Assembly: GCF_026914265.1 (NCBI RefSeq)
Contig: NC_069124.1
Span: forward strand, 60,232,589 to 60,296,588
Direction: 5' to 3'
Length of the DNA: 64,000 nt
Source of the DNA: Mya arenaria
Taxonomy: Eukaryota; Mollusca; Bivalvia; Myida; Myidae
Under the pieces are notes generated by a model that was given only the letters and a program-made list of their open reading frames with translations, searched no databases and had not been told where the DNA came from. A program made the translations under genes and the position numbers. Shown piece after piece: positions 1 to 60,681 of the stretch. Each line of letters starts with the position of its first letter. The first letter of the stretch is position 1.

Positions 1-99
1 TTATATTGATTAATGTTATGTTCGCTTCATAACGGAACTTTAAAACTGCTATTGATAGCAATAATAAAACAACTATTTCCTATTTCGCTTCTTTTAGCC

Positions 100-3090
100 A
101 TGCTTACACTCGTCATAGTCGTCCTGGCCACGCTGGTTGGCGGCTCCCTTCAGCAACCGGGAATAATAAACCTCAATCTCGGTGGAGGCGGTGACGCTGT
201 GGCGCCTCAGACGCCCTATGTGAAACCCGCGTTCTGTCACGACCTTGATTGTCCAAAATACACCGTCATGGAAACTAATGATGTAAGTATTTTATTTCTT
301 TTAATTCTCAAACTTTGCCTCTAGTCCATCAAGATGTGTATGTATATGTGCCAGAGAACATACAAACCACTATGTATACACAAAACCTCACTTTGTATGT
401 CCCCTTTATAAAACTCCTACTACCCACTGCTTAAAAGTGTTAATATTGGTCTGCCCTTGGTATATGTGTTTGACATTGACAGAGTATGTGTAAATATTTA
501 CACCTCAACTTCCATTCTTTAAGTGAACTATCTTTCGGCAATTGCGTTCATCAATCGATGAACGCAACATCTTCGGATATGTTCGGATCGTAATTCATTG
601 CATAACAATATACATGAAAGCTATTGATCTTGTTATTGGTTGTATTGTGTCTGCAGGTCCCGTAAAAATATAGATCAACATTTTTAATAGTGTTAGTTTA
701 TTATATGTTAAATATATTGATACCAGAAGTGTTTCAATTTTACGTTTTAAAGTGATTTCAAGTGGTTGATCTTTTCCCGCGTTATTGTAACGTCATTTGA
801 AAAATGTTTCCGGTTATAGTAGGGTCGTTCTATTTACAGAATGGGTAAGAACGGATTACTGAAAGGTTTTCTTAAATGAAATGAAGTATTTTTTTAACAA
901 TTCTTGAATGAAATAATGAACTATTGGTGTAAATATAAGGAATGAATTGCGGGGTTGATGTCATTATCGGGGTATGAACGCAATTGGGTTGGTCAATGTG
1001 TGTGGAGTCCAAAGGACTCCACGCGTACTTTGACCAACCCAATTGCGTTTATCGCCCATTATTCACAGCAACAACGTGGGTGGCAAAAATGTTTGCCGTC
1101 AAATACCATAGCCTTCTTAGATAGTTGATAGACTAGCTAAATTAGACCATCTTAATATACCTACAAACGATTACGAGCTTTATGAAGGAAGCTCCATTTA
1201 TATCATTTAACTCGTCTTTCACGTATTTTGGTGGAACTGACAATACAGTTTGATTTATAATTTTATGACTTTAATGCCAACTGCGTTTCACGTAGTTCGA
1301 ATATGTCCTATTTTTCATGGATTTTTAAATTTGTCCAATTTTACCTGTCGATTCTCTTCTTACAACGAACGATACTTTTATTTCGATTTTAGTGTTTGTC
1401 ATTTATCAAACAAATCGTATAAATTTAAACTTATGTAATTATACATTTCGCCAGCAATTCGAGAAGCGCCGCTACGAACCGTCTGTCTGGGTGGCCACAT
1501 CCCTGTACACCTTCAACTACACCAAGGCACAGAACGACCTGATGTTCTATAAACTCTTCCACTATATCTCCGGGAATAACTCTGCAAGTGAGTCGCATTT
1601 AAGGTCACAAACTACTAAATAAATATCCTTTATATTCTATTGTCAGTTGACCAATTTCTCGCGATATAACGAAATAACACCGAATTCTAGTGCATCACGA
1701 CACCCATAACCATGTTTGAGGAGAAAGTTTCACATGTGTAATCAACATGAAAAAAAGTCAGAAAAAGTAACATTTCTTATATGAACAATTAAATCAGTTA
1801 AACGTATAACCACTGTGTATTCGATAAAATGACCAAATCCGTTGTAGGGGTACAACTAATACGGTTATAATGTTATACAAAAATGTTGATCAAGTAGGCC
1901 CAACATGGTCAGTCTGTCTTTTGAAATCACAAACTATTCAGCTTCATAGGCTTTAAATATAGAAAGTAGCCAATAGACTGACATGGTATAACCATGCCTT
2001 GATTCATTGTCATGTGTCAATTGAAAGAAATAATGCATGTAACAGTGAGTAGACACTTCCGAATTGGTGTAATTTGCCGTTATTAAATGCATCATTGAGT
2101 TAAAGTCTTCGTGTAAGCAAAACTTACCATTTTTCAAATTAACCGAGGTTTCAAAATGAATCTTCATTGTTGAACATACCAAATGACGTATTTCTGTAGG
2201 TTTCGATATTTCCTGTTTGTTAATTGGTCATCTCATGTAGCAGTACAAATTTAGCTGAACACATTTGAAACAACGTATGCGGCCATAGTCTGGTTTCGTG
2301 TAAGTTCAGCAATAGACAAGAAACAACAAATCATTCAACACATGGGGATATTTATACGATGAAAAGATACCATAACAGTGCAGTTTACCTGATAAAAAGG
2401 TGTATCGTTCGGCCCATCTTTAACTGATGTAACGAGATGTTTATCAAGTGACTATGTTGTCTTTACAGATCAAAAGATCGCTATGACCGCCCCTGTGGTT
2501 ACGGAAATAGTTCATGGACCAGGCCCGGACTGTGAGAGTAACTTCACCATGCACTTTATGGTGCCCTTTGACCTTCAGGCAAACCCACCTGCACCCACAG
2601 AGTCCTCGGTCTTCATCAAGAGAGTCCCTGAGATGACCGTCTATGTTAAGTAGGTGACCAAACTTCTTTTATGTGCATTTCAAGATCCATTCTAAGCGTA
2701 AATCGTAAATAAATATTAGGATATTATAATAATCAAAATATTATCGTTCATATAACTAAGCACGCACGCTTCCACCACACGTCATTCAGACGTCATAAAG
2801 CGACTGCATCTGACTAACGGGAGGTCCCTGTCAATATGTTGCTCATATATAATAATTGCTTTAAATATAATAACTGTATGTACATAAATAAGTAATATAT
2901 TTCTGTCTGTCCATGCAGATCTTACAGCGGGTTTAGCAACGACGCATTGAAGCGCCAGAATCTTGAGGAAGAGGTAAACTCCCTCGATTCCATGAACCGG
3001 AAGTACTCCGAAAGCGTCTTCCTTACCGCCTCATATGATGGTCCTTTCGCCTTTGTCCGGCATAACGAAATATGGCTCGTCGCCATGTAG
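100..3090 (+). CDS. SOUL/heme-binding protein (HEBP2-like), copy A
   Basis: Four coding exons: 100-282, 1455-1587, 2469-2649 and 2919-3090. All junctions are GT-AG, the phases agree (0, 1, 2), and the exons total 222 codons plus TAG. The product starts with a hydrophobic signal-peptide-like stretch (MLTLVIVVLATLVGG). Next come a Cys-containing linker (FCHDLDCPKY) and a SOUL domain with the typical FEKRRYEPSVWVAT, KIAMTAPVV and VYVKSYSGF blocks, ending in a conserved FVRHNEIWLV tail. SOUL proteins bind heme or other tetrapyrroles; the signal peptide suggests a secreted or luminal form. The chosen ATG follows a possible splice acceptor (cttttag|CC), so a non-coding first exon may lie left of the window; an in-frame ATG at 13 would add 29 residues but is not conserved in the paralog at 9058. 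It is the tandem paralog of that gene. The ligand is not shown by the sequence. Confidence 0.88.
976..1050. repeat. Hairpin-forming inverted repeat in intron 1 of SOUL gene A
   Basis: Arms of about 35 bases (976-1010 and 1014-1050) are complementary with only two or three mismatches or indels around a 3-base loop. The outer motif AACGCAATTGGGTTGGTCAA is paired with its exact complement. A second, smaller palindrome at 544-565 (GCGTTCATC...GATGAACGC) repeats the outer motif, so the two may be ends of one small foldback element of about 500 bp. No coding potential is seen. Confidence 0.7.
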
Positions 3091-3704
3091 GACAGGAGCA
3101 TATAGATATTTTAGTCTGTATGTGAGTAACATCGTTGTAAACCGAAAATTAGGTCATTTCCTCTGAAAATTCGGTGCTACTTTTAGTCTTTCAATATATC
3201 TGTACATGTTTCACAATAAAACGTTTGAAGTGAATATGATTAAATAAGACATTAAGTTCTGAGACCCTCATATAAGCTATTCCCATGACCCCCACACCCC
3301 TGCGCTTAAGCAGTTGACAGCGTGAGACGAGACACGGCAGGTCACGCCACCACAACACCTCAATTACTACAAATTTGACACCTGATATATATTTTTTTTT
3401 CATATTAAGTTTGTCATGATTATTTTTTTAATTTAAGACGAAAGGAGTAGAAATTATAAAATAATAATTTTATTAACGTTAACAGTTCTTTATCGATCTC
3501 AAAACAAAACACTAACGGGAAAGAGCAGTATCGAAAATAAGTGTGTATACATGTTTTGTAAGACATTATACTAGTAATTAAAATTATGTATAATTTGTTA
3601 TAGATATATTCTTTTAAACATGTGGCCATATACACTTGACATGTAAACACGTTATTACCTTTGTAACTTTATATTGATAGTATCATCTTTATCATTGTGC
3701 ATTG

Positions 3705-3710
3705 AATAAA
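3705..3710 (+). terminator. Poly(A) signal of SOUL gene A
   Basis: An AATAAA hexamer lies about 615 bases after the stop codon at 3088-3090 and is the first clear one on the + strand. The 3' UTR in between contains no other recognisable feature. Confidence 0.5.
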
Positions 3711-3989
3711 CCTACAAACTTGATATCACTTTTTGTTGTTGTTTTGTGACAGCCTGCATATGTAAGGAGCATCCCCAAACGCCTGTCATTGTAATATACC
3801 ACTGGAACACCGCTGTTTCTAGGGTTACACGATGATAGGCGCATTACACGTTGAATTCTTTTACACTTTTTGGTAATTTATCGGGTTCTAGACTATTTTG
3901 TACTTGCTGTTTTTTTCCACAGCTGTAAAATACCTTATTTGATATTTGCACTGGTCATACTAAATCTTTTAACCAATACTATACATAAC
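3711..3989. other. Intergenic spacer, nothing recognised
   Basis: AT-rich sequence between the SOUL gene A poly(A) signal and the decayed LINE. I see no open frame, splice pattern or repeat here. Confidence 0.5.
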
Positions 3990-4970
3990 ATTATTTCAAA
4001 ACATGTCGCCAAAGAAATGTAAGAAGGTAAAATCACTCCATCTACCAGGATGGTTAAATGGGAATATAAAAACTGCAATAAGGCTTCGTGACAAACTAAA
4101 AAAGAAGGTTAACTAGATAAGTACAAGAAGCAAAGAAAAAAAGTAACACATTTAATTCGAAAAAATAATATTCAATTTTATAACAATTCTATCAAAGTAA
4201 ATAAAGGTATTAAATACATACATTTCACAAACATCTCCAATCTCGTTGAGAAAGTAAAATAGGATGAATGTAATTTTTTAACCCTCAAATCTGTTTAAGA
4301 TAATAAACTTAAAAATGAATTTTTTAAAATCGAATTTATTTCTATCTTTGAAGTTCGTAAAATATAGACAGTTTAGATGACTCAAAGGCATCTGGACTTG
4401 ATAAAATAGGACCTTACATTCTTAAATATTGTGGAGATGTAAATATTGGACCTATAACGTCCATCATAAACAGCAGCATTTCAAGTGGAGTATTTCCAGA
4501 CCGCCTCAAAGAAGCGTGCATCATTCCAATACACAAAGAGTCTGACATAAACGACCTCAACAACTATCGGCCAATCAATTCTTCCTACAATTTCTAAAAT
4601 GTTTGAAAAACACATCGCCAATCAATTGAGAAACTATCTTGATAAATATCACATATTACATGTTATCAATTCCGGTTTTCGTCAGAATCACTCATGTCAA
4701 ACAACTCTTATACGATTGGTTGATTCTTGGTTGAAAGATATTGATTCTGGTAATGTTGTTGGAAATGTTTTTCTAGATCTTCGTAAAGTTTTTGATTTGG
4801 TGGATCACGATATGCTTCTACATAAATTGAGACTGTAGTATTTCTCTGATTCAAGCCTTAAGCTTATAACCTCATACTTACTAATGTGTCGTCAATGCAT
4901 AAAGTAGGAGATAGGAAATATACATTTCAATTTGTTAAAAGTGGTGTTCCACAAGGCTCCTTTCTAGAAA
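3990..4970 (+). mobile_element. Decayed LINE fragment, reverse transcriptase part
   Basis: Translation on the + strand gives typical non-LTR retrotransposon pieces: a basic region near 4050-4120, an RT finger/palm stretch (KASGLDKIGPYILK at about 4385, then FPDRLKEACIIPIHK and NDLNNYRPI), a longer open piece at 4599-4838 with NSGFRQNHSCQTTLIRL and FLDLRKVFDLVDHD (RT motif A), and GVPQGSF (motif B) near 4940. The frame changes at least twice and stops occur, the catalytic DD block and the endonuclease are missing, and the 3' limit is unclear. It resembles the CR1/L2/Jockey-like group; the exact clade is not settled. Confidence 0.72.
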
Positions 4971-5235
4971 TGGTTCATGCCCTATTTGTAACAAATAGTA
5001 ATGGTTTCATCGAACCTGTATATATGTATTTATCCTCACTTTACTGATAAGTAGCACTTTAACATGTTCTCATTTAATTGTTATTACTGAGTATTATCGT
5101 CAACAGCATCGTCGTCAAACACGGTACGTAATTCCGTTTTACTTCATAACAAAGAGAAACATTGCGTAGTAGTGTGTTGATGGTATCCGACGACGCATCA
5201 AAAGAAGCGCTACCACTACCGCCATTTTTGTAATT

Positions 5236-5500
5236 CACATATCGATGTGAAGAATTTCAATGGTCCTTTTTCGAAACTTGGCTGAAAACATTACAGTTAA
5301 CTGCGTAATTCAGCTGTTCCAATATCTGCGCTACCTCCCTCACCAAGAAGAATTCGAGAGTGTTGGTGTCAACCACGCTCACGATTCCCCAGAAAGCCAG
5401 ATTATGGACCACGGTTATGGGCAGCACGAATGCTATGTATGCTACCACGACCCGAATAAGCATGACTGATATCCGGAGAGTGTCAGCATCCGCCTTTAGT
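5236..5500 (-). pseudogene. GPCR relic (TM6-TM7), paralog of the receptor at 22211-23395
   Basis: On the minus strand this stretch reads KADADTLRISVMLI and then a TM6 and TM7 region ending in REVAQILEQLNYAVN. It differs from the receptor at 22211-23395 in only about six of the 56 residues of its longest open piece. After the TM7 start a short deletion relative to the paralog shifts the frame; the cytoplasmic tail start (KFRKR.IEILHI) continues in another frame. Everything upstream of TM6 is absent, so it cannot make a receptor. It lies convergent to SOUL gene A, just as the intact receptor lies convergent to SOUL gene B. Confidence 0.85.
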
Positions 5501-6089
5501 TCCCTGATGAACTGTAAGTATAGGTCATAGTTAATTAAAGTAGATAATTAAAACATATGAACTTAATAATGAACCAGCTTTCGATGAGCTATAAGCATGG
5601 GCGAACCTGAAACATTTTTAATTGTTACGCCCGTATTACTTGAGTGAGATGTGGACATGTGGAGGTATTCCCTGTCCAGTCCCGCAGGAATGTTTTCAAG
5701 AATTCAATAATGAAAAAAAACTTTCCAAGAATGCTGAACTTTATCATTTAGCGAAATTACAATAAACTTTAAACAGTAAAATGTTGCATGTCCCTAATAG
5801 AAGAAAGGTATTTGAATACGTGTTAACATCAGATGTCTAACTTTGTATAATTTTATTCATCAGAAAGTATTTGATTGATTCTCGTTAATAGCTGCTGTTT
5901 CGTTCCATTACAAAATTGATTATTCCATGTATAACTGATCCCTAATTCATCAAACATATGTTTTAACATGATTCATACACTTGAAATGAGTACCATTGCA
6001 ATTTAAATGGGTAAGAAGTATTTCATAAAGCTTTGTAGACGGTGTCCTTTTTAATTATGCTAAAATTCAACCATACGTGTCTTAAATAC

Positions 6090-6620
6090 AAGCGACAATG
6101 GATAGCGACCAAGATCACCATATAACGTACTCTTTTTAACTCAGAGAATATGTTTTAAGAATTCTATGTGTACCTTTTCAATAAGTGGCAGGTCACCATA
6201 GCCCCAGATCTCACAACCATATGTCAAAATTGGTACAATGGTGTGGTCAAACAATTTAAGTTGGCAATCAATGGAGAGGTCTGAAGTCCTTATTTTCCTA
6301 TGCAGACTAAACATTGATTTACGAGCTTCCTCTGTTACATGCTTCTAAGCCAAAACAAAATGTCTATTTTTCGAGAACAAAATGCCTATATATTTTAAAT
6401 GATCAACAACCTCTATTGTACTTTTTTAATTTTAATGTCTCTATTTCGTCTCATTCTATTGCCAAATACTATATGTTTTGTCTTATCATAATTAATACAT
6501 TAGTACTAAGGTTCAATTGACATCATTAAGAAAATTATATTCAGTACATATTTAAGATCATCCTCAGAAGTTGCAAACACCACTGTGTCATCGTCATATA
6601 GACAAACAGACAGGCAGACA
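6090..6620 (-). mobile_element. Decayed LINE fragment, C-terminal half of reverse transcriptase
   Basis: The minus strand reads LYDDDTVVFATSEDDLKYVL (the RT catalytic YxDD block, with the third motif residue D in place of the usual A) at about 6610-6540. Further on it reads EEARKSMFSLHRKIR, DCQLKLFDHTIVPIL, TYGCEIWGYGDLPLIEKVH and FLKHIL, the hallmark thumb and connection region of LINE RTs. The pieces fall in different frames with stops between them. It is in opposite orientation to the fragment at 3990-4970. The open plus-strand frame at 6314-6520 is only its shadow. Confidence 0.75.
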
Positions 6621-9057: not shown

Positions 9058-11642
9058 ATGCTTACACTTGTCACAGTCGTCCTAGCCGCGCTGGTTGGCG
9101 GCTCCCTCCAGCAGCCGGGGATACTTCCGGACGCCTTTGTGCCGCTACATCTCGGAGAAAGCGGAAATGGCGGGGTGGCTCAGACGGATTATGTGAAACC
9201 CGCGTTCTGTCACGACCTTGATTGTCCGAAATACACCGTTATGGAGACAAATGATGTGAGTACTTTGTTTTAGTTTTCTTTTCTATTTATAAGAATTTAC
9301 TTTCCGTATTAAAAAGAATGGAATCTCAACTTTAATATCATTCAAACGTTTTTGGTTTGCAAGTATGTCTTGTCTCATCTTTCTGGTCTTCCACTCATCA
9401 TAATTATTAATTTCATATAACGAAACGGCGCTGATCGTATTGTGTGTGTGACTTCAGTCATAATTTGTGATACACTTAGCTTTATCCTATGTTATATCCT
9501 TCTTTAATCGTTCCGCCTATGGTTATTTATAAATTTTCTTTAGAAATTCGAGAAGCGCCACTACGCCCCGTCTGTCTGGGTCGCTACAACCATGAACACC
9601 ACTAACTACACCAGGGCGCTCAACAGCCAGATGTTCTTCAAACTCTTCCGCTATATCTCCGGGAATAACTCTGCACGTAAGATCCTCTTTATATTCATCC
9701 CAATCTCGTTGCAAGCGAAGCTATAAGTTTGGTTTGAAAAGAAATAAAATTGTTAAAATAATATGATCCATTTTTAAACGAAGGAAACGCAAATTGGACG
9801 TTACAACTTTAATTTTTGCAACTTTATAGACGTATGTCACACTTCGATATCTCGAATGCTGCATGAAAACACGTTATAATCTACGTCAGTTTGAACATCC
9901 TGTGTAAAATCTAAAAGACTTTGAGGAGGCATTGCCCACTTCAACATTTTAATCATTAAAGGAGGAGCGTTTTTAGCTCAGTCTTATTTTAGGCAAATGG
10001 CTTAGTTGTAACCTCAACTATTGCCGGTTGTTAGCCACTTACCATAATAACAAGGACTCTTTTTTATAAAACAAACAAATAAACACATGATTTCATGCTG
10101 AGCAAATATAAAAAAAAAACAATGCAACTTCGTCCTGATACTGCCTATCATGTGCTTTAATCACTGTACATTTCTGTATAGTACGTGACTATTTTACCTC
10201 TACAGACCAAAAACTCGCAATGACCGCCCCCGTGCTCACTGAGCATGTTTTTGAGACCAGCGTCGCCATGCAGTTCATGATACCCTTTGCCCAACAGGCG
10301 GCCCCGCCCACACCCACGGAGCCGAAGGTGTACATCAGGAATGTCCCTGAGACTACTTTCTATGTCCGGTATGTGCCGCCAAATTGATTTTAAAATTCGG
10401 AAACTTAAATAAAAAATGTTCGAGATGTTTACCAGAGTCAATCACTGTATGTCTCAGTTTCTCATTTTCTAAATTCATTAAGAAGGCAACGTATATGAAA
10501 CCCCCTTGATTTTATTTGACGAGGGGCGCTCAAAATTAATCCGATAAATGATCTCATTTCGTCAGACATGAACGAAACGTACTGAAATGTTTACAATATG
10601 GCAGATCGTTACAATGCGTAATGAATCGAACAAAAACTCATATGTCTGTTTGGGGGCGGGGTTGTATTTCATCTTTGTTAAGTGCTTTTGGTATGGAACT
10701 TATTTCAGTTTGGCTTGAATGGTTTCGGCGGTTTGCAAACCTGTTTCTAACGTTTTGCTTGAACTAAGAAACGAATTATTGTGTGAATAGTTTTAACAAC
10801 ATGGTGGAGCCTTTGTGTGTAGCCATTATGTCTGAATTTCTTCAAAACACTGATATCGCAGATGGTCGTTTGCCTGTTTTAATAGATGGTGTTTCAACAT
10901 ACGTGATGGCTCACTGTCAGTCATTATTTTCCCTTGTGAACTAGATTTCGAATGGAACAAACCGTCGAGACTGCCCCCGGAGGGGGATTTCGATAGTTTC
11001 AAAAAACAAGTTTCGGTTTTCGTAAAACAAACGATAAAACTTGTTTTTATTTTATTTGAAACTGTCACAACCAACACACGGTTCGTGAAACAGATATAAA
11101 ACCAAAACTATTTATCACCAATAAAAACGTTCTTGATATATTTGAATGCAGCTTTATCTTGCATAATCTGATGCTGCGGAATCTTTATTTAAATACAATT
11201 TACACAATTCTGTTGTTTTTTTCAATTAAAACAACGAGTTTACCTTTAAAGTTGACCATTTGGACAACTATTTTATTTTTAAATGAACCTATTTAGGCGT
11301 AAATTTCTGGGAACCAGTGATATAATACTGGTGATATAATATAAGCTCGACGTTTTAATATTAACGTTCAAAACGATTTATGGCTTAAAGCGTTACTAAC
11401 GGTCCAACGGTGAGAGTGCAGCTTTAATGGTCACATATGGTGTTCCAAAATCATGATTCATGTTTTGCAGATCTTACGGCGGATTTGACAGCGAAGACAT
11501 TAAGCGTCAAAATGTCGAGCAGCTGAAAGCGGACCTGAACACCATGGGCCTGAAGTACACCGATAACGTATTCCTTACCGCCGGATATGACGCTCCTTAC
11601 GCGTTCGTCCGGCACAACGAAGTATGGCTCGTCGCCGAGTAG
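9058..11642 (+). CDS. SOUL/heme-binding protein (HEBP2-like), copy B
   Basis: Four coding exons, 9058-9255, 9544-9676, 10206-10368 and 11471-11642, have GT-AG junctions in the same phases as copy A and encode 221 residues. A signal-peptide-like start (MLTLVTVVLAALVGG) is followed by a linker rich in Gly, Pro and Val and by the SOUL domain: FEKRHYAPSVWVAT, KLAMTAPVL, FYVRSYGGF, and the tail FVRHNEVWLVAE. Predicted role: binding of heme or a related tetrapyrrole outside the cytosol. An in-frame ATG at 9031 would lengthen the signal region by nine residues but lies before a possible acceptor (ctttcag|CC) and is not matched in copy A. Exon 4 and the 3' UTR lie within the 2.45-kb segment that is duplicated beyond the LINE; the last exon is therefore present twice and codes for the same residues. 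Confidence 0.88.
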
Positions 11643-12222
11643 GGTGGGGGCGCGTAAGGATTCGTTCCAGCAAAACAATTTTAGTTTGGCACGCAAACTT
11701 GTTTATGTGTTTTATCACCAAACCTATGTTTGAGAATTTCTTCATTGAATTTCATGTTCCAGGTTTGTATAGCTTTCAGAATCTTAAAAATTCTGTGAAG
11801 AAGTAGTTATGGAAATTATTGTTTAACTGTGTATGCGTGTTTGTTAATAGGTAAACAAGTACTGTTACGACCTACTAGGGAACTAGGGTACAACTCATAA
11901 ACAGTTTGTATGAGCTTGCCTGACCCCCTCACAAAAGTATTCATGGCCAAAATTCTGGCCCTATAGATATTTTATCATCAAACATGTGTGTAAGTGGATG
12001 CTATTGTCTTTTTTTTGCAATGTATAATATTAATATTATATCTGTTTTAACTCACTATTCGTCGTATTTTGGTGAATGCCTTTAACTATGGTGAAACTAT
12101 GATGATCAAACCGTGTGTATGTGTGCTATTGTTAGAATATCAACAATTGTTTATGTTTTAATTAGCGGTGAACATTGACGCCCCATTGTCTGTTTTAGAT
12201 AGTGTATTTGTTTATATTCACG

Positions 12223-12228
12223 AATAAA
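12223..12228 (+). terminator. Poly(A) signal of SOUL gene B
   Basis: An AATAAA lies about 580 bases after the stop at 11640-11642, at a spacing like that in gene A. The same hexamer is present in the downstream duplicate at 20920-20925. Confidence 0.5.
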
Positions 12229-12484
12229 GCCTGAAATACACCTCCTGAACATTTATTATTATCCTTCTATCTTATGGCGAGAAGTGTTGACAAAAAGCTT
12301 TTTCTTCTATTTTTGACTTGGCAGTCCACTTGAAAGGCACTACTATTTTACCTGATCGGACTATTTTCTTGTCCAATACAAATAAAAGGCAAACTGAAAC
12401 ATTTAACAATTCTCACCCCGCCCCCATTGTTTCGATCGATACTTTACAAGTCGACAGATGATATTAGACCTAACATGAACATAG

Positions 12485-12954
12485 AGGACAATCATATCGA
12501 CCAAGTTTCATGAGACTGTGTTAAACATAAGGTCCGTGCGGTAAGCAATTACTAGTACTCCCCTAAATCAATACTGACCAAGTTTCATGAGATTGTGTTA
12601 AACATTAGCTCCGTGCGATAATCATTTACTTCCCTCAATCAATACTGACCAATACTGACCAATTTCCATGAGATTGTGTTAAACATAAGGTCCGTGCAAT
12701 AATCATTTACTTCCCTCAATCAATACTGACCAATACTGACCAAGTTCCATGAGAGTGTGTTAAACATAAGGTCCGTGCAATAATCATTTACTTCCCTCAA
12801 TCAATACTGACCAATACTGACCAAGTTCCATGAGAGTGTGTTAAACATAAGGTCCGTGCAATAATCATTTACTTCCCTCAATCAATACTGACCAATACTG
12901 ACCAAGTTCCATGAGAGTCTGTTAAACATAAGGTCCGTGCAATAATCATTTACT
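12485..12954. repeat. 81-bp tandem repeat (left copy, truncated by LINE)
   Basis: Units of 81 bases are built from TACTTCCCTCAATCAATACT, a doubled ACTGACCA, then CCATGAGAGTGTGTTAAACA and AAGGTCCGTGCAATAATCAT. Two degenerate shorter units lead in and about four regular ones follow. The last unit is interrupted at 12954 by the LINE 5' end. Confidence 0.85.
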
Positions 12955-13352
12955 CGATTGTGCGCATGCGTGAAAATGGACAGTCGCGTTTTATTGCAGT
13001 GCTAAAAAAATGGACTTTTAAACGGATTTACGCATAGGACAATAATAAAAGTTATATGTACGTGTTTGAAAATATGTGGGAAATTGGATTTTAAAAGTAA
13101 AAGTAACATTGTGTCAAAAATATTGGAGTTATATGTGTTTTTTGGCTCATCCTTTGTTATTTTTCAAATCACAAATTCATATATCGCAGTGTTTACTGAC
13201 TGATAAGTGCTCACGGATTACAAAGGTAACTGTTAACGATGTCGAAGTTCCACCAAAGACATTGAACTAACACAAATAATCCCTGGTCGCCGACTCATCA
13301 CGCATGACTGCACATTGACCGTTAGTAGTATTGGTCATTAATACCCATCGAT

Positions 13353-15293
13353 ATGGCACAGATGGAGAGTCAAGGATTAACTGAACTTGAACCAGTGACG
13401 CTCAGCGATCACACGGAGGTTAAAATCCCCTATTCATCGGAAACAATTAATGCGGACACGGATGACCACGACGCATCCCCAGCATTCAGCCCTAACCGCT
13501 CAATTGACTGTGACACCACGATAGATGTCAACGAGAACGAGTGTAATGACCTTAATGAATACCACAGGCTAATTGCACTCGCAGAAGGTGTACCCAGTAA
13601 ATTATTTATAGACCAACTTCTATTGGACTATGGTAACTCACAAGAAAGGTTAGAGCACACCAGAACGATGCTCTTTTCGTACGTTCGTGATTCTGACGAC
13701 TATGGGTTGGATACGAACGTTGAACTTAAAAGACGGGTAAACACACGGACTGGTGACCCCGCCACAGTGAAACTCGCTAATGACATTCACTCAATAATTC
13801 TTGTCTTAAGCGGGGAGGACATATCGAACATCAAAGAAGTAATAAGCTATCCCAAGAAAGCGCCAAGACACAGCACAGCCCAGACACCTGGCAAATCACA
13901 GGCCGGTACACACGGCAAGTGCACGTGCTGTATTGAATTATCACAACTAAGAAAGACTGTTGACGTACTACAAGCTGATATTTTGCAGCTCAAACAACGG
14001 CAGAGCTCAAATGACGCTGAAAGGGACGAAAGTCACTTAACTGTACAAACGTCAATCATCAACAACGCCAAGAATATTGACTATCACCGTAAATGTATAC
14101 ATACTATTCAAGGTAAGATAGACAACTCCACCACGAAGCAGGATATACTCGGAATACAAGAAACCCTGAAGGTGTTACAGACATCCATCTTATCTATGCA
14201 AACGACGCTTAACACCGTTTGTAACACGATCTTCGTACAATCTAATTCTTCTGCCACAACCGTTACGGAATCGAACGACAGGCAGCAAACTATTGTGAAT
14301 GTGGCACAACCAGTTCCCACTCACTACCAACCGCAGTCTTCACACGAAGGGCTTATTGCCCATAACAATGTACATTCCGTGTCGCCGATGGAACAAACGG
14401 GGTCTATGCATTGGCCTCCGTTGCCGACACAGGAAGTGTCTACACACCCGGAACAACCGGCTAATGAAGCACACCAACACAGGAGCAGCACGAATGCCCG
14501 CGAAGGAGCACAATCCTGTGCCAACGATCGGGCAACGGAATCGTCGGAACCTGAAACTAGATCAACGCCCAGTGTGCAAAACAACAACACCAATATCAAC
14601 CCCGCATCAAAACGTATGAACTTTCGCGGGCGCAATGGAACAAATTATATTGGACAAATGGTTACTTTTGATACAAACAACGACAATACACACAGAAAAG
14701 ATGCGTCAATAAGTGAATCTATCAGTGACGCCGTGGCTCAACAACCGTCGGCTAGCAACGACGAAGCTGACTTTGGGCAATATGTGAAGCGCCGACCTAA
14801 ACGTTATTACGTCGGTGGGTTTAAACCTAGCATAACTGATTCAAGACTCGCCAAATACATCAACGACCAAGGGTTAAAAGTCACAAATATCCTGATTATG
14901 CGCAAACGACGATTTAACAATGTTGTTATCCGCATAAATCTAGAAGATGATGGCCAAGCGGACAATATTTTAAAAGAGGACTTCTGGCCATCCGGTATCG
15001 TATGTCGTCCCTGGAAGCCGCCTTCGCGACAACCTCAACAGGGACCCGGATATAAGTCGGGAACCAGTCATCGTTACTCGGATGGAACCAGGGGGCGCTC
15101 CTCAACAGAGCACCAGGATGACGGCTATAGGAGCGATTCCAGAGCGTGGAACAGTCACGAGCGTGCGTATGACACACAGCGACAGACAGACCACAGAACG
15201 AGACCCAGTGTGCAAGAACGGGACCTTGACTATTATAATGTCGACGTTCAAAACCGATTCGACCGACTTGAAAACGATATCTATTACCAGTAA
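13353..15293 (+). CDS. LINE ORF1 protein
   Basis: A 646-codon frame without interruption. The N-terminal 150 residues are acidic to mixed. A Cys pair (CTCC, about residue 191) leads into a coiled-coil-like stretch (LRKTVDVLQADILQLKQRQS, about 197-216). A long Gln/Asn/Ser/Thr-rich linker follows, then an RRM-like RNA-binding fold (RRPKRYYVGGFKPSITDSRL to IVCRPWKPP, about 485-560) and a basic Arg/Ser/Asp-rich tail. This layout is usual for ORF1 proteins of non-LTR elements, which coat the element RNA as trimers or higher oligomers. The ATG at 13353 was chosen as the first in frame after the UTR. Open frames inside it on the other strand are shadows. Confidence 0.85.
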   Translation: MAQMESQGLTELEPVTLSDHTEVKIPYSSETINADTDDHDASPAFSPNRSIDCDTTIDVNENECNDLNEYHRLIALAEGVPSKLFIDQLLLDYGNSQERLEHTRTMLFSYVRDSDDYGLDTNVELKRRVNTRTGDPATVKLANDIHSIILVLSGEDISNIKEVISYPKKAPRHSTAQTPGKSQAGTHGKCTCCIELSQLRKTVDVLQADILQLKQRQSSNDAERDESHLTVQTSIINNAKNIDYHRKCIHTIQGKIDNSTTKQDILGIQETLKVLQTSILSMQTTLNTVCNTIFVQSNSSATTVTESNDRQQTIVNVAQPVPTHYQPQSSHEGLIAHNNVHSVSPMEQTGSMHWPPLPTQEVSTHPEQPANEAHQHRSSTNAREGAQSCANDRATESSEPETRSTPSVQNNNTNINPASKRMNFRGRNGTNYIGQMVTFDTNNDNTHRKDASISESISDAVAQQPSASNDEADFGQYVKRRPKRYYVGGFKPSITDSRLAKYINDQGLKVTNILIMRKRRFNNVVIRINLEDDGQADNILKEDFWPSGIVCRPWKPPSRQPQQGPGYKSGTSHRYSDGTRGRSSTEHQDDGYRSDSRAWNSHERAYDTQRQTDHRTRPSVQERDLDYYNVDVQNRFDRLENDIYYQ

Positions 15294-15336
15294 ATACCTA
15301 AGATATCATTAACAATATATCATATATCTATTAACA

Positions 15337-18300
15337 ATGTATTTCAAACTACGTATAATAATTTTTATGGTGTTATGCAAAACTATGACCACTTCTTATA
15401 ACATTGCAACTTGGAATGCAACAGGAATAATGTCAAGTGCAAGCTACCTAAATGAACTATTAGTACATTCCAACCTAGACTTTTGTGGAATAAGTGAACA
15501 CTGGTTACTGAGAAAGCATTTACATTTCATGAATCAAATTAACAGTAACTATATAAGCTATGCAACGTGCGATCCAGAACTTGACATTTATAGTAATCGC
15601 AAAGTTGGAAAGGGCGGACTATGTATCATGTGGAAAAACACTTTAGACGATAAAGTTTCAGTGTTGAATTTAGAGATAAGTTGTTTAATTGGTATAGAAT
15701 ATCAGTTAGATGTAAACACTACATTATATATTTTTCAGGCATATATTCCCTGTAAAAATCACAACATTGTAAAATATAAACAGTGTATTGAGGACATAGA
15801 CAATGTATTAAGCTGTTATTCTAACAAAGGAACGGTATTTTTAATGGGAGATTTCAATACTGAATTACCGTCGAGGACATGTATAGACACAAAATTTACC
15901 TTTGACACAAGGGGCAATACTCTTTGTAACATGTTGTTAAATTACAGTTGTGTCCCCTTAAATGCTTTACCATTATGTACAGGAGCGGATTATAGCAATG
16001 TTCCATATGGGTGTTTAAGAGAAACACTGATTGATTATATTTTTGTAAATGACCATTTTGTACCTAATATTGAATCGTGCAAAATTGTTGATGACCATGC
16101 CTTAAATGTATCTTCGCATAGGCCGATTGTATGCTCTTTTAAAATAAGTGTTACTATGCAAGAAAGTAATCAATGTATAGACAAAGACAAATTTGTTAAT
16201 TGGAAATGTATTAAACAGAAACATATTGCTATGTATAAACAATTTATGTCTGAGTGTCACCAACTAAATAACTTATTGTGTAAAGAAATAACATGTTGTA
16301 ATGATATAGATATGCTGTATTGTAATATTGTTGAAATAGTTTCTATGGCAACCTTACAAACTATACCTAAACCTGTATTTAAAGCCCATGTAAAACCATA
16401 TTGGAACGAAAGATTGTCGGCACTGCACAAAACTATGGCGGAATTACGTTCATCGTGGATCTTAAATGGTCGTCCTAGAAATGAGAGTCACAAGAGTTAT
16501 AGTGAATATAAAAACGCTAAACGTCGTTTCAGGAACGTTCACCGTACTAGTGTCACAGAATATCACAATAAACTTGAAAACGAGCTGAATAGGACTGCTG
16601 AAATTGATGCTACCGCTTTCTGGAAGATTGTAAATAGAAGAAAGAACAATACACGCAAAAGCAAATCATTTGAAATGTGTTTCCATGGAAACGTATTCAC
16701 TTCCCCGAAAGAAATTAACTCGGGTTGGAAGAATTACTTCTCACAGCTTTATTCGCCCTCGTACCAAGATTTCTTCGATTATGGTCATCTGAAAGGGGTT
16801 TATAAAGACTATGAAAATATAAAGCTCCATGCAGAGAATTCGAACGAGAACAATTTACTTATCTCAGAAGATATCGTAAAAAGCGCCTTGAAGACATGTA
16901 AGAAAAATAAATCCTGTGGGCATGACGGAATTTACTATGAACATATGAAATATGGTGGAGATGTCTTTATCAGTGTCTTAACATACTTATTTAAAAACAT
17001 GTCGGACTTCGGATATTGTCCTAAAGATATGAAAAAGGGAATAATAACGACACTCTTCAAAACTGGAAAAAAGGATAAAACTAATCCAAACAATTACCGA
17101 GCAATTTCTCTCTGCTCGACCATTCTCAAATTATACGAGAAAGTGATATTATGGAATATAGACACATGTAGGTACGTCAAAATAAATGGACTGCAGGGTG
17201 GATTCCAAAGAGGGCTTAGCTGTTTATCAACATCATTTATGACCAACGAGTGTATAAATTATGCCATTGAAAATAAATCTAAATTATACGCCTGCTACCT
17301 GGATGCAAAACAAGCTTTTGACAATTTGGACCTCAAGATTCTTATATATAAACTTTATAACGCTGGTATTCCCCTCAATATACTTAAAATAATGATTAAT
17401 CTACAGGCTGAGGTACAAAGCTGCGTCAGATCAGGTCCGATTACGTCAGATTGGTTCCCGATCAGAAAAGGGGCCAGGCAGGGCCAGTGTCTCAGTTCCT
17501 TCTACTACCTCGTATACATAAACGACCTTCTCGAAGACCTTTGTGGTTCCTCAATAAGTCTCCATATTAACGACACAAAGTTCGCATGCCCAACAGTCGC
17601 CGACGATATGATGCTATTTTCATTAACACCAGACGGTCTACAAAGTATGTTACATATATGCTATGAATACACTAGAAAAAATCGCTACATGTATAACGCC
17701 AGTAAATGTAAAATTGTAGTATACAATGACTCTAAACCAAAGCCAAATCAACAGAAACTACAATGGTTAATTGGTCGTGACATCGTAGAAGAAGCTGAGA
17801 GCTACGTTCATCTTGGGATAACAAAAGACAAATACTCGACCCTAAATGTAAATATAGATGAATGTTGTGCAAAGCTACGAAGAACCTATTTTGGTCTTGG
17901 TGAAACGGGCCTTAACAATAACACTGTACATCCATTATCCATAAAACGTCTTTACGAAAGTGTAGTCCTACCTAAAGCACTCTATGGCTGCGAAGTATGG
18001 AACAGATTGACATCATCACAAATATTGCAACTAGAACGGGCACACCGCACATGTGTGAAGCATATTCAAAGTATGCCACGACATACACGATCGGACATAA
18101 CACTTAGCTGTCTTGCCGTATACCCACTAGAAACATATATAGACAAGAGAAAGCTACTGTTCTTTGGACAATTATGCAGGACCAATTCTGACAAAAATCT
18201 GAAGCGCCTATTTATATACCGGCTTTTCAGCTTTATCAATTCTCCAAGTGATCAAATTGGATTTGTTCCAGATTTGTATAGACTATTTTGTAAATATTCA

Positions 18301-18864
18301 TTGAAAGCTGTACTCGAAGAATTTATGGCGACCTCACACTTCCCAAATGAAAACGCGTGAAAAACAGCAGTCCGAAAAGCGATTCATATTCATGTATGTC
18401 AAGAGTACAAGTCTAGAGGAGGCGATACACAGTTAGAAACTTTCAAAACAATACACTGTGACTACTCCTCATCGATTCTGTGGGTCTTCAGTAAAATCTA
18501 CAGCGATCAGCTTCTATACTGCCGCTCATCAATGAGAGTCCTCTGCAAATTCTTCGGACGACGATATACTGTAACATGTCACCAATGTAACATTTCGACT
18601 GAAAACATAGCAGCACACTCAATACTCTATTGTAGAAAAACGGACCAGTATAGACAGCAAATGTGGAAACATATATACAAATGCATGGGTGCGAAAAACT
18701 ACCAACAGTTTGTGAGTCTTGAACCCGACGAACAAATGCTCGAACTACTATCTGGGTTCGTTCACATTAGCATGAATGATATGAAACGTGTGTCCTGCTT
18801 TAAAATTGCAGTACGCTATGTGCACATTTTAGGACAATATGGGTGCAATGTATTAAACATATAA
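15337..18864 (+). CDS. LINE ORF2: AP endonuclease and reverse transcriptase, one premature stop
   Basis: The protein begins with an AP-endonuclease domain: TWNATGI near residue 26, SEHWL, MGDFN at 170-174, and DH...SSHRPI with catalytic His at 261. The RT follows, with NPNNYRAISLCS, LQGGFQRG, motif A LDAKQAFD (Asp 656), ARQGQCLSS (motif B) and VADD at 754-757 (Val where Tyr or Phe is common). A connection region with YGCEVWNRL comes next. The frame meets TGA at 18358-18360, then stays open in the same frame for 57 codons and into the 110-codon piece at 18532-18864. That piece ends with a zinc knuckle of the pattern CX2CX9HX4C (from about 18577). The stop follows GCG and could be a CGA-to-TGA change at a CpG. 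The ATG at 15337 or a better-placed one at 15385 (MTTSYN) may be used. Confidence 0.9.
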
Positions 18865-19203
18865 AATATTGGAAAATATGTGATAATAGTTCTTTAATGT
18901 CATAGAACATGTCTAGTACATTTCGTTTCGATCCTAGAATGTTTAGGTTGATTATTATTGAACTTACACGTATTTGTTTGTAATTAATAATTACTTATAT
19001 TTTCCTATAGTCTTAATAGGTTATGCTCTAAGTATTATTAATTTGCACACTTTGTTTGTTTACATGTATACTATTTATTTGCTGTATGTAATGTTTAATA
19101 TGTGCTTATTTGTCACCAAACTTTTGTATCTATGTCACATTTGTATGTAACTATGTTTTGCTCTCCAATTATGGAGGAAATAAACAATCTATCTATCTAT
19201 CTA

Positions 19204-21651
19204 TTGATTTTATTTGACGAGGGGCGCTCAAAATTAATCCGATAAATGATCTCATTTCGTCAGACATGAACGAAACGTACTGAAATGTTTACAATATGGC
19301 AGATCGTTACAATGCGTAATGAATCGAACAAAAACTCATATGTCTGTTTGGGGGCGGGGTTGTATTTCATCTTTGTTTAGTGCTTTTGGTATGGAACTTA
19401 TTTCAGTTTGGCTTGAATGGTTTCGGCGGTTTGCAAACCTGTTTCTAACGTTTTGCTTGAACTAAGAAACGAATTATTGTGTGAATAGTTTTAACAACAT
19501 GGTGGAGCCTTTGTGTGTAGCCATTATGTCTGAATTTCTTCAAAACACTGATATCGCAGATGGTCGTTTGCCTGTTTTAATAGATGGTGTTTCAACATAC
19601 GTGATGGCTCACTGTCAGTCATTATTTTCCCTTGTGAACTAGATTTCGAATGGAACAAACCGTCGAGACTGCCCCCGGAGGGGGATTTCGATAGTTTCAA
19701 AAAACAAGTTTCGGTTTTCGTAAAACAAACGATAAAACTTGTTTTTATTTTATTTGAAACTGTCACAACCAACACACGGTTCGTGAAACAGATATAAAAC
19801 CAAAACTATTTATCACCAATAAAAACGTTCTTGATATATTTGAATGCAGCTTTATCTTGCATAATCCGATGCTGCGGAATCTTTATTTAAATACAATTTA
19901 CACAATTCTGTTTTTTTTTCAATTAAAACAACGAGTTTACCTTTAAAGTTGACCATTTGGACAACTATTTTATTTTTAAATGAACCTATTTAGGCGTAAA
20001 TTTCTGGGAACCAGTGATATAATACTGGTGATATAATATAAGCTCGACGTTTTAATATTAACGTTCAAAACGATTTATGGCTTAAAGCGTTACTAACGGT
20101 CCAACGGTGAGAGTGCAGCTTTAATGGTCACATATGGTGTTCCAAAATCATGATTCATGTTTTGCAGATCTTACGGCGGATTTGACAGCGAAGACATTAA
20201 GCGTCAAAATGTCGAGCAGCTGAAAGCGGACCTGAACACCATGGGCCTGAAGTACACCGATAACGTATTCCTTACCGCCGGATATGACGCTCCTTACGCG
20301 TTCGTCCGGCACAACGAAGTATGGCTCGTCGCCGAGTAGGGTGGGGGCGCGTAAGGATTCGTTCCAGCAAAACAATTTTAGTTTGGCACGCAAACTTGTT
20401 TATGTGTTTTATCACCAAACCTATGTTTGAGAATTTCTTCATTGAATTTCATGTTCCAGGTTTGTATAGCTTTCAGAATCTTAAAAATTCTGTGAAGAAG
20501 TAGTTATGGAAATTATTGTTTAACTGTGTATGCGTGTTTGTTAATAGGTAAACAAGTACTGTTACGACCTACTAGGGAACTAGGGTACAACTCATAAACA
20601 GTTTGTATGAGCTTGCCTGACCCCCTCACAAAAGTATTCATGGCCAAAATTCTGGCCCTATAGATATTTTATCATCAAACATGTGTGTAAGTGGATGCTA
20701 TTGTCTTTTTTTTGCAATGTATAATATAAATATTATATCTGTTTTAACTCACTATTCGTCGTATTTTGGTGAATGCCTTTAACTATGGTGAAACTATGAT
20801 GATCAAACCGTGTGTATGTGTGCTATTGTTAGAATATCAACAATTGTTTATGTTTTAATTAGCGGTGAACATTGACGCCCCATTGTCTGTTTTAGATAGT
20901 GTATTTGTTTATATTCACGAATAAAGCCTGAAATACACCTCCTGAACATTTATTATTATCCTTCTATCTTATGGCGAGAAGTGTTGACAAAAAGCTTTTT
21001 CTTCTATTTTTGACTTGGCAGTCCACTTGAAAGGCACTACTATTTTACCTGATCGGACTATTTTCTTGTCCTATACAAATAAAAGGCAAACTGAAACATT
21101 TAACAATTCTCACCCCGCCCCCATTGTTTCGATCGATACTTTACAAGTCGACAGATGATATTAGACCTAACATGAACATTGAGGACAATCATATCGACCA
21201 AGTTTCAGGAGACTGTGTTAAACATAAGGTCCGTGCGGTAAGCAATTACTAGTACTCCCCTAAATCAATACTGACCAAGTTTCATGAGATTGTGTTAAAC
21301 ATTAGCTCCGTGCGATAATCATTTACTTCCCTCAATCAATACTGACCAATACTGACCAATTTCCATGAGATTGTGTTAAACATAAGGTCCGTGCAATAAT
21401 CATTTACTTCCCTCAATCAATACTGACCAATACTGACCAAGTTCCATGAGAGTGTGTTAAACATAAGGTCCGTGCAATAATCATTTACTCCCCTCAATCA
21501 ATACTGACCAATACTGACCAAGTTCCATGAGAGTGTGTTAAACATAAGGTCCGTGCAATAATCATTTACTTCCCTCAATCAATACTGACCAATACTGACC
21601 AAGTTCCATGAGAGTGTGTTAAACATAAGGTCCGTGCGATAATCATTTACT
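19204..21651. repeat. Right copy of 2.45-kb direct duplication flanking the LINE
   Basis: This begins exactly where the LINE TCTA tail ends and matches 10506-12954 across its whole length, including the SOUL exon, the poly(A) signal (20920-20925) and the 81-bp array. After 21651 the sequence continues into the natural end of the array and unique DNA, so this copy holds the original right flank while the left copy holds the original left flank. That is the geometry of a target-site duplication. Confidence 0.93.
20168..20339 (+). pseudogene. Orphan terminal exon of SOUL gene B
   Basis: The acceptor (ttttgcag) and 172-base last exon of the SOUL gene are present a second time, coding for the same residues as exon 4 at 11471-11642, stop codon included. 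Exons 1-3 are not duplicated, so this copy has no promoter or start of its own. It could only be used as an alternative last exon spliced from exon 3 across the LINE, which would give the same protein. Its intactness reflects the recent duplication rather than selection. Confidence 0.9.
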
Positions 21652-22210: not shown

Positions 22211-23395
22211 TTATGTTTTGCAACATAGAGGTGGTTTCTCTACATCCGCCTGCTCTGACGACGCTCCCGTGTCCGAATGATGACCATTCTCGTTATCCTT
22301 ACAGCTAGATTGACCTGGCTTTCGTTTCTGACCCGAAAGATTAGTAAAGGATGTATTTTTCGACGAAGATTTTCGTTGGGCCAATTTCATAATGCATCCA
22401 TCGATGTGAAGAATTTCCATGGCCCTTTTTCGAAACTTTGTAGAACAAAGTACATAGAGTACAAAGTTAACTGCGTAATTCAGCTGTTCCAGTATCTGCG
22501 CTACCTCCCTCATCAAGAAGAATTGAAGAGTGTTGGTGTCAAACACGCTGACGCTTTTCCAGAAAGCGAGATTATGGACCACGGTTATGGGGAGCACAAA
22601 TGCAATGTATGCTACCACGACCCCGATAAGCATGACTGATATCCGGAGAGTGTCCGCATCCGCCTTTTCTGCGCTGGCTCCACCGCCCTTGGACATCCGG
22701 TTCCTTATTTTTTTCTGCCGAAGAAGGCGGTAGACGATAACGGGCGTCATGATGGCCATCACTATCATGGGGATCAGGGAGTAAAATGACGAGCCAGCTA
22801 TTAGATAGTCGCGGTACTTCTCCTTGGTGTGAGCGTAGGTGATATCCGGTTTGCAGACTCCGTCAACAACTATAGATGAAAACGTCCATACTGCGTTGAA
22901 GATTCCAATGAAAAGATAGTCGAGAATGATCAGGGCCATGATGGACTTGATGGTGATGATGGCTTTCGCTTTGAATGGAAACACAACGGCGATGAATCGT
23001 TCAAAACATAAGATAACGATCAACCAAGATGATGTCATTTTACCAGTTTTGAAGATGTGAAAGAACGCTTTGCATCCCACGTCAGATATCGCTCTGACGT
23101 CATATCCGATCATTTTTCTCACGAAAAGCTTGTTGAACGGCTGTGTCAGGAGAAGCGTGGTGTCTGAAATCGCCAGTGCGATTAGGATGTATCGTGACGT
23201 CATACCGGAAAACACCTTCGAGCTCATGATGAGGATGGTCAGTATGTTGCCAAAAAGTCCGAAAATAAGAAACATCGGGGTAATGACATAACCTGCAGTA
23301 TAAAAGTTGTCCTGGACGTATTTCCACCATACTTCCGGTTTGACGGAGTCCGTGACGTTAGCAACCATCGTAGTGTTGTCGAATAACTCTGCCAT
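22211..23395 (-). CDS. Class A (rhodopsin-like) GPCR, peptide-receptor type
   Basis: Single-exon coding frame of 394 residues with seven hydrophobic segments. Class A landmarks: N-glycosylation sites near the start (NTT, NVT), GN at 49-50 in TM1, SD at 77-78 in TM2, Cys108 at the top of TM3 and Cys181 in loop 2 (the disulfide pair), and ERF at 132-134 in place of DRY. In TM6 VLP lies at 267-269, and NFVLY at 310-314 replaces NPxxY. The tail is Ser/Lys-rich. Family resemblance is to invertebrate neuropeptide receptors of the FMRFamide/TRH-like type; the ligand cannot be read from sequence. A splice acceptor (ttttttcag) 26 bases before the ATG suggests a 5' UTR intron. AATAAA on the minus strand (plus 21780-21785) is the likely poly(A) signal. 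A relic of a second copy lies at 5236-5500. Confidence 0.9.
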   Translation of the reverse strand: MAELFDNTTMVANVTDSVKPEVWWKYVQDNFYTAGYVITPMFLIFGLFGNILTILIMSSKVFSGMTSRYILIALAISDTTLLLTQPFNKLFVRKMIGYDVRAISDVGCKAFFHIFKTGKMTSSWLIVILCFERFIAVVFPFKAKAIITIKSIMALIILDYLFIGIFNAVWTFSSIVVDGVCKPDITYAHTKEKYRDYLIAGSSFYSLIPMIVMAIMTPVIVYRLLRQKKIRNRMSKGGGASAEKADADTLRISVMLIGVVVAYIAFVLPITVVHNLAFWKSVSVFDTNTLQFFLMREVAQILEQLNYAVNFVLYVLCSTKFRKRAMEILHIDGCIMKLAQRKSSSKNTSFTNLSGQKRKPGQSSCKDNENGHHSDTGASSEQADVEKPPLCCKT

Positions 23396-23568
23396 TCTTA
23401 ACTAAAGGGTGGTTTTGTCCTGAAAAAAGGTAAACGATGTGGTTTAGCTGGATTTTGCAATCTAAATTAATTGTCTACAGTAATGGAGTCAAAACTCAGG
23501 AAATGCACAATGGCTGGACGCCGTCAAACACAAACAATTGAAATACTTTAGTATATGATAAAGACATC

Positions 23569-55736: not shown

Positions 55737-55914
55737 TGTCAATGGTAAGTTGTTCTCAAGTCAGTAATCTACGGCTAAGAACAATACTGTGGAATCTATC
55801 TGGACGAGCCCAGCAGGCAACATTTCACATGTGTTAAAGGCGACACGCAACAGGTAACATCGATATCAAAATATTGTTATCAGTAGATGTTGGGTTATGG
55901 CGTTGGACAGGTCA

Positions 55915-58900: not shown

Positions 58901-59290
58901 TAGAACGGTCAGTGGAGATATCACCATTGAAACGGTCAGTGGAGATAACAACCTTAGGTCTCGGAGATATCAACATTTGAACGGTCAGTGAATATATCAA
59001 CATCATTAGAACGGTCAGTGGAGATATTAACATTGGAACGGTCATTAGAGATATCAACCTTGGACGGTCAGTGGATATATCAACATTGAAACGGTCGGTG
59101 GAGAAATCAACATTTGAACTGTCAGTGTATATATCATTCTTTGGACGGTCAGTGCATATATCAACACCATTAGAACGGTCAGTGGAGAAGTCAAACTAGG
59201 GACGCTCAGTGAAGCTGTCAACCTTGGAACGGTCAGTGGATAAAACAAAGGCTGGAATGGTCATTGAATATATCAGCCTCGCAATAGTCC
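55915..59290. repeat. 27-bp minisatellite array, two sequence classes
   Basis: About 120 units of 27 bases. From 55915 to about 56850 the units are very uniform (GAAGATCTCAACCTTTGAAC plus GACCAGT, with rare GGTCAGT variants). From about 56850 to 59290 they are more varied, built on GGAGATATCAACCTTGGAAC plus GGTCAGT, with higher-order patterns of several units (for example the GAAATGGCCGTTGGAGATAT variant recurring with its neighbours). Since 27 is divisible by three, long frames are open on both strands, which give 9-residue periodic peptides; none is likely a gene. Confidence 0.95.
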
Positions 59291-60640: not shown

Positions 60641-60681
60641 TGTTTAAGATCTACTTGTATTTTAATAAGACCAGCTAAAAA

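What the first reader, a model, noticed from the sequence alone, without database searches (positions are those of the whole stretch)
10506..21651. LINE flanked by a 2.45-kb direct duplication whose edges match both LINE ends
Seen directly: 10506-12954 and 19204-21651 are about 99.6 percent alike. The first copy stops exactly at the LINE 5' end, in the middle of an 81-bp repeat unit, and the second starts exactly after the LINE TCTA tail. The left copy continues into the original left flank and the right copy into the original right flank. This is the geometry of a target-site duplication but about 100 times longer than usual for non-LTR elements. Recombination between two LINE copies would leave LINE sequence at the outer edges, and none is there. 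Possible causes are a very wide staggered cut, insertion coupled to repair synthesis, or LINE cDNA used as filler in a tandem duplication.
Basis: partly seen in the sequence, partly recalled or inferred. Interest (0 to 1): 0.85.

Follow-up and report, generated by a model that had tools for sequence, protein, structure and literature searches.

The report
LINE insertion with kilobase-long target duplication
A jumping gene copied itself into this animal chromosome and duplicated about 2,450 bases of its landing site instead of the usual 10-20, and two of its 19 sister copies carry shorter scars of the same kind.

Summary
A 2449-bp segment (10506-12954) recurs at 19204-21651, 99.6% identical, with a 6.25-kb LINE exactly between the copies. 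A search of the window's own genome lists no other full copy (40 of 2551 candidates scored).

I surveyed the 20 copies of this young LINE family found in that genome. Three of 20 sit exactly between long direct duplications: 2449, about 890 and 147 bp. All three are inserts of at least 5.5 kb (3 of 5, versus 0 of 15 shorter ones; post-hoc p = 0.009). No copy has a convincing ordinary short target duplication. Six are blunt or have small deletions, eight show no duplication, three are undetermined.

The window LINE's private mutations (15/6244) fit the divergence of its flanking copies (9 in about 2448), so LINE and duplication look equally old. Best reading: one target-primed event whose first nick lay in the last intron of a SOUL-type gene and whose LINE 5' end was joined about 2.45 kb downstream.

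Kilobase duplications are known for human L1 in repair-deficient cells and tumours. I found no natural recurrent germline case in the papers searched. New variant of a known kind.

The parts
10506..12954 (+). left copy of the duplicated target segment A
   Evidence: 99.592% to 19204-21651; original left flank continues upstream
12955..19203 (+). full-length LINE; the shared element starts between 12956 and 12961
   Evidence: 20 copies in own genome; 5' ends compared
13329..15293 (+). LINE ORF1 open frame, 654 aa, no Pfam family over cut-off
15313..18360 (+). LINE ORF2 (endonuclease and reverse transcriptase), ended by an in-frame stop at 18358-18360
   Evidence: Exo_endo_phos 1.4e-7 and RVT_1 4.4e-22; the frame goes on to 18864; stop absent from the 11 other copies that reach it
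19188..19203 (+). (TCTA)4 tail
   Evidence: read; the tail is present in 20 of 20 copies
19204..21651 (+). right copy of the duplicated target segment A
12499..12954 (+). 81-bp tandem array cut by the LINE 5' joint; its counterpart on the right runs 21196 to about 21713
11471..11642 (+). last coding exon of a SOUL-type gene, left copy; upstream exon ends at 10368
   Evidence: SOUL 2.6e-8 for the exon peptide; frames; splice sites read by eye
20168..20339 (+). orphan duplicate of that last exon in the right copy of A
   Evidence: no mismatch between the two A copies in this stretch

Best explanation
This is a single LINE insertion with a kilobase-scale target-site duplication. The LINE endonuclease nicked the bottom strand between 10505 and 10506, and reverse transcription of the LINE RNA started there from its TCTA tail (inferred from the exact 3' joint, not observed). 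A full 6.2-kb cDNA was made. Its far end was joined, perhaps with a few extra bases, to top-strand DNA ending about 2.45 kb downstream, inside an 81-bp array. That end lay either on the same molecule (second break far away, the rest filled by synthesis) or on the sister chromatid; both routes give left flank-A-LINE-A-right flank. In this family the second joint is apparently not held at a set distance: it ranges from deletions of about 90 bp to +2449 bp. Shown: the structure, the exact edges, two further cases in the same family, matching ages. Inferred: the nick, the order of steps, and the route of the second joint.
For: Exact edges at both LINE ends. Two of the other 19 copies have the same geometry, about 890 and 147 bp. 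For the window copy, 15 private LINE changes in 6244 columns against 9 A-A differences over 2 x 2448 sites, p = 0.68 for one clock. 20 of 20 copies keep a 3' end in the TCTA tail, followed by AT-rich sequence (80% against 65%, 2 of 5000 resamplings, positions chosen after looking). Long duplications fall only among inserts of at least 5.5 kb (3 of 5 against 0 of 15, p = 0.009, post hoc), as expected if the second joint drifts while a long cDNA is made. The same product is documented for human L1 in NER-deficient cells (PMC5223499, passages).
Against: 17 of 20 copies show no such duplication (6 blunt or deleted, 8 none seen, 3 undetermined), and two of the five long inserts (c02 0 bp, c04 about -75 bp) do not either. 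The nick consensus is weak. For c03 the LINE has more private changes than its flanks predict (p = 0.08). A control LINE family showed no long duplication in 12 copies, but the difference from 3 of 20 is not significant (p = 0.27). No read evidence could be seen.
Confidence: 0.8

Rival explanations
1. Assembly artefact: the two haplotypes of a heterozygous LINE insertion were joined in series, so A is one locus written twice.
For: The assembly may be the highly heterozygous, PacBio FALCON-Unzip Mya arenaria genome (inference; PMC10663159, passages), where such errors are possible. The A copies differ by only 0.37%.
Against: A wrong join would not be expected to fall exactly at the LINE 3' end, and the same exactness is seen at two other loci, with duplications of about 890 and 147 bp that single long reads span easily. 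The true right flank of the LINE would have to be missing.
Confidence: 0.08
2. Two steps: A was first tandemly duplicated, and the LINE later inserted exactly at the A/A junction.
For: Gives the same final structure; the array inside A shows that tandem change happens here.
Against: Needs an insertion within a few bases of one point at three loci. LINE and A-A ages agree. The listed matches hold no A-A tandem, though another haplotype could.
Confidence: 0.04
3. A tandem duplication formed by break repair, with LINE cDNA captured as filler at the duplication joint rather than primed at a LINE nick.
For: Up to six possible extra bases at the 5' joint, and the A edge lies in a tandem array, where forks might stall (inference).
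Against: The LINE is full length with an intact tail; captured cDNA should often be broken at the 3' end, yet 20 of 20 copies keep it. The sequence after the tail resembles that of the other copies in composition.
Confidence: 0.06

Closest known systems
Large target-site duplications of human L1 in nucleotide-excision-repair-deficient cells (PMC5223499; passages)
   Same: Direct duplications from below 100 bp to several kb exactly at the insert; the text gives 5 bp to 5.3 kb, median 1495 bp, and Table 1 lists one of 2455 bp.
   Different: Engineered element in cultured mutant human cells, A-tailed L1. Here a natural germline copy of another LINE, in a genome that holds XPA_C and XPC-type matches.
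L1-mediated tandem duplications in tumours (PMC7058536; passages)
   Same: LINE cDNA bridging two places, with the LINE between the two copies of the duplicated segment; sister-chromatid bridging proposed there.
   Different: Somatic, 22.6 Mb in the described case, small L1 insert. Here 2.45 kb, full-length, present in a reference genome.
R9 of rotifers, 126-bp duplication (cited in PMC6895275 and PMC2861651; passages)
   Same: A natural LINE with an unusually long target duplication.
   Different: R9 is rDNA-specific with one set stagger as cited. Here the length varies from about -90 to +2449 bp and sites are scattered.
Ordinary APE-type LINEs, 10-20-bp or shorter duplications (PMC6895275, PMC4245944; passages)
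   Same: ORF1, and ORF2 with endonuclease and reverse transcriptase; variable 5' truncation.
   Different: No short-duplication peak was found among the 20 copies here.

Membership tests
APE-type non-LTR retrotransposon (LINE) | APE-like endonuclease domain in ORF2 | tested here: met
   Exo_endo_phos 1.4e-7, over the cut-off
APE-type non-LTR retrotransposon (LINE) | LINE-type reverse transcriptase | tested here: met
   RVT_1 4.4e-22; PDB sequence matches to R2 proteins and an RNA-directed DNA polymerase
APE-type non-LTR retrotransposon (LINE) | constant 3' end, variable 5' truncation | tested here: met
   20 of 20 copies end in the TCTA tail; starts range from 1 to 6150
APE-type non-LTR retrotransposon (LINE) | short (about 5-20 bp) target-site duplication | tested here: not met
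   none above the mismatched-flank null except c17 in its tandem array; usual but not required for membership
Large-TSD insertion as in NER-deficient cells | direct duplication over 100 bp exactly at both insert ends | tested here: met
   3 of 20 copies
Large-TSD insertion as in NER-deficient cells | host defect in NER | tested here: inconclusive
   one XPA_C match over the full profile and two partial XPC BHD_3 matches are present; activity unknown, other NER genes not searched
L1-style sister-chromatid bridging | the two copies of the duplicated segment stem from sister chromatids | not testable with these tools
   the 0.37% divergence fits post-insertion mutation, which argues weakly against two diverged homologues but cannot tell sister from same molecule

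The most novel reading that the evidence does not exclude
This LINE family has no fixed second-strand cleavage. Inserts that finish reverse transcription are often completed by joining to whatever top-strand end lies up to kilobases downstream, so full-length copies regularly duplicate host segments, including whole exons, in the germline. That would make the family a natural counterpart of what I found described for L1 in repair-deficient cells and tumours.
Probability: 0.35. Interest if true: 0.75.

Novelty: new variant of a known kind. Interest (0 to 1): 0.6.

Why it matters
The second half of LINE integration is called very poorly understood in PMC6895275 (abstract, listing). A natural family with joints from about -90 to +2449 bp and no short-duplication peak bears on the question of random versus specific second-strand cleavage (PMC4245944, passages). 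It also shows a route by which a LINE can duplicate exons in a germline: the last exon of a SOUL-type gene was copied, while the gene itself apparently stayed whole because the LINE ended up downstream of it.

Tried and rejected
Rejected: an insertion-made inverted duplication at c02. I first read the 443-bp inverted match beside c02 that way (note); one search showed that the other arm holds the empty site, so the inverted repeat is older and c02 is a blunt insertion.

Rejected: c08 as a fourth long duplication of about 1.96 kb. The flanking paralogues are only 95% alike and a third copy lies 22 kb away; counted as undetermined.

Rejected: c20 as an insert with a unique filler. The 406 bases of its 5' flank next to the LINE are a high-copy repeat (39 other matches at 95-96% among the 40 scored of 1027 candidates); undetermined.

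Tried without a firm result: a control LINE family, the one into which c04 is inserted (12 copies). No long duplication was seen; one copy has a clear 14-bp duplication (L059), one a weaker one of about 20 bp (L063), one a 7-bp match (L053), and one lies in a tandem array (L055). The 3' flanks of ten of the 12 copies were only about 0.4 kb, and the 5' ends of the two 3-kb copies are not firmly set. The contrast with 3 of 20 is not significant (p = 0.27). Loss of NER as cause: XPA_C and XPC-type matches are present. LINE clade: not resolved. PMC10584689 and PMC10294476 (passages) gave nothing on long target duplications.
Full report
OBSERVATION. The finding stands at its coordinates. Segment A, 10506-12954, recurs at 19204-21651 with 9 mismatches and one 1-bp gap (99.592%). 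Between them lies a 6.25-kb LINE. Its (TCTA)4 tail ends at 19203, and the next base begins the right copy of A. The left copy of A ends at 12954, inside an 81-bp tandem array, and the right copy carries the same array on into its own right flank. The window lies in an 18-contig, 1.216-Gb assembly. A DNA search there lists only these two full copies of A among 41 matches (40 of 2551 candidates scored).

WHAT THE ELEMENT IS. ORF1 (open frame 13329-15293) has no Pfam match over a cut-off. ORF2 (from 15313) has an Exo_endo_phos and an RVT_1 domain, and its reverse transcriptase matches R2 proteins and another RNA-directed DNA polymerase in the PDB by sequence. In this copy ORF2 has an in-frame stop at 18358-18360; the 11 other copies that reach that codon read sense there. 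A twelfth cell, c15, was set aside, because that copy starts beyond the codon and was misplaced in the alignment. The clade was not determined.

FAMILY CENSUS. A search with 311 bases just before the tail finds 20 candidates, all 20 scored, and each is a separate copy of this family; matched pieces are 96-100% identical (where 40 of 202 candidates were scored). A search with the 5' third finds six candidates, all scored. Such searches can miss copies. Four copies are full length (c01 = window; c02 C8:292181; c03 C5:50291827; c04 C8:36906656, which itself carries a later insert), and c05 (C14:15505885) is 5.5 kb. For the other 19 copies I held at least 1.35 kb of flank on each side.

TARGET ALTERATIONS IN THE 20 COPIES. 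Three have long direct duplications abutting both LINE ends: c01 2449 bp; c03 884 bp on the left and about 891 on the right (98.4%, one 7-bp length difference); c05 about 147 bp (100%). Six are blunt or deleted, read from empty sites in paralogous sequence: c02 0 bp with about 3 extra bases (empty arm of an inverted repeat); c04 about -75 bp (several empty copies of the host LINE); c09 about -11, c13 about -5 and c14 about -91; c11 about -83 or -96, by two paralogues. Eight show no duplication: c06, c07, c10, c12, c15, c16, c18, c19. Their first 260 bp of 3' flank appears once in the listed matches (40 of 288 and 40 of 1486 candidates scored), and the local comparison shows nothing. Three are undetermined: c08 (paralogues), c17 (tandem array), c20 (next to another repeat). 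A test for ordinary 5-59-bp duplications gave nothing above a null made from mismatched flank pairs, except c17 in its array; the 6-bp match at c18 is at the 90% quantile of that null.

INSERT LENGTH. The three long duplications fall among the five inserts of at least 5.5 kb (3 of 5 against 0 of 15; Fisher p = 0.009, undetermined copies counted as no). Leaving out c08 and c17 gives 0.012, leaving out c20 as well 0.015. This was noticed after the data were seen. Two of the five long inserts do not follow it (c02, c04).

AGES. The window LINE has 15 private substitutions in 6244 columns of a 20-copy alignment. If LINE and duplication are equally old, the two A copies should differ at about twice that rate; they differ at 9 of about 2448 sites, and a binomial comparison gives p = 0.68. 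For c03 the LINE has more private changes than its flanks predict (51 of 6355 against 7 over 2 x 892, p = 0.08). That could reflect a source lineage that was already distinct, but it is not a confirmation. The agreement for c01 leaves little room for A copies drawn from two diverged homologues, though local heterozygosity was not measured.

MECHANISM. All 20 copies end in the TCTA tail. The 3'-flank bases at positions 3-9 are AT-rich (80% against 65%; 2 of 5000 resamplings; positions chosen after looking), in line with endonuclease-primed reverse transcription. [quoted passage not shown] Here that position seems unfixed, from about -90 to +2449. Two physical routes to +2449, a distant break on the same molecule with repair synthesis, or bridging to the sister chromatid, give the same sequence and cannot be told apart here.

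GENE CONTEXT. The exon 11471-11642 encodes the end of a SOUL domain (2.6e-8 for its 55 residues, profile positions 118-172 of 173). Open frames between 9001 and 10384 look like its upstream exons (read by eye, not tested by profile). The inferred first nick lies 137 bp into the last intron. Because A was duplicated, the gene keeps its last exon in the left copy and the LINE lies downstream; the right copy holds an orphan last exon. Expression was not tested.

COMPARISON. Kilobase duplications are documented for engineered L1 in NER-deficient human cells: 5 bp to 5.3 kb in the text, median 1495 bp, one listed at 2455 bp; over 100 bp in at most 10% of events in HeLa, and in 3 of 9 events in complemented cells (PMC5223499, passages). 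L1 bridging produced a 22.6-Mb tandem duplication in a tumour (PMC7058536, passages). The longest natural case named in what I read is 126 bp for R9 (PMC6895275, passages). I found no natural LINE family with recurrent kilobase duplications in the searches, which cover only the held open-access library and of which I saw listings and some passages. XPA_C and XPC BHD_3 matches exist in this genome, so wholesale loss of those two genes is not the cause. A control LINE family (12 copies) showed no long duplication, but the sample is too small to separate family from host.

SOURCE. Size and contig number fit the published Mya arenaria assembly (1.22 Gb, 17 scaffolds; PMC10663159, passages). This is inference, not a test.

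VERDICT. A real and unusual insertion scar, most likely one target-primed event with long-range joining of the LINE 5' end, and one of three such scars in a 20-copy family. New variant of a known kind.

Noticed in passing
LINE positions 6096-6208 in 10 of 20 copies (c03, c07-c11, c14-c16, c19), e.g. G000:C5:50298033: These copies carry a second (c08 a third) tandem unit of about 113 bp in the 3' UTR; the window copy has one. This looks like a second subfamily.
   Followed up: no
G000:C4:70472915-70473481 (c15): The 5' end of this truncated copy repeats a 53-bp LINE stretch (5702-5754) with 4 bases between, as if the reverse transcriptase restarted.
   Followed up: no
L010 (c02, C8:292181-298423): This full-length copy sits in one arm of a 99% identical inverted repeat of over 440 bp; the other arm is LINE-free.
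   Followed up: yes
window 22211-23401 (-) and 59636-60643 (-): Two single-frame rhodopsin-type GPCR genes (7tm_1 2.3e-19 and 3e-21) lie on the same strand.
   Followed up: no
window 33922-34794, 41283-43535, 55903-59289, 60680-62107: Four other long tandem arrays with units of about 36, 17/43, 27/54 and 43 bp.
   Followed up: no
window 50009-50764 (+): A second reverse-transcriptase fragment (RVT_1 2.7e-10), not related to this LINE in the searches made.
   Followed up: no
window about 10688-11142 and 19386-19840 (inside A): About 430 bp of A belongs to a dispersed repeat; 38 further places at 77-82% identity were listed in the genome.
   Followed up: no
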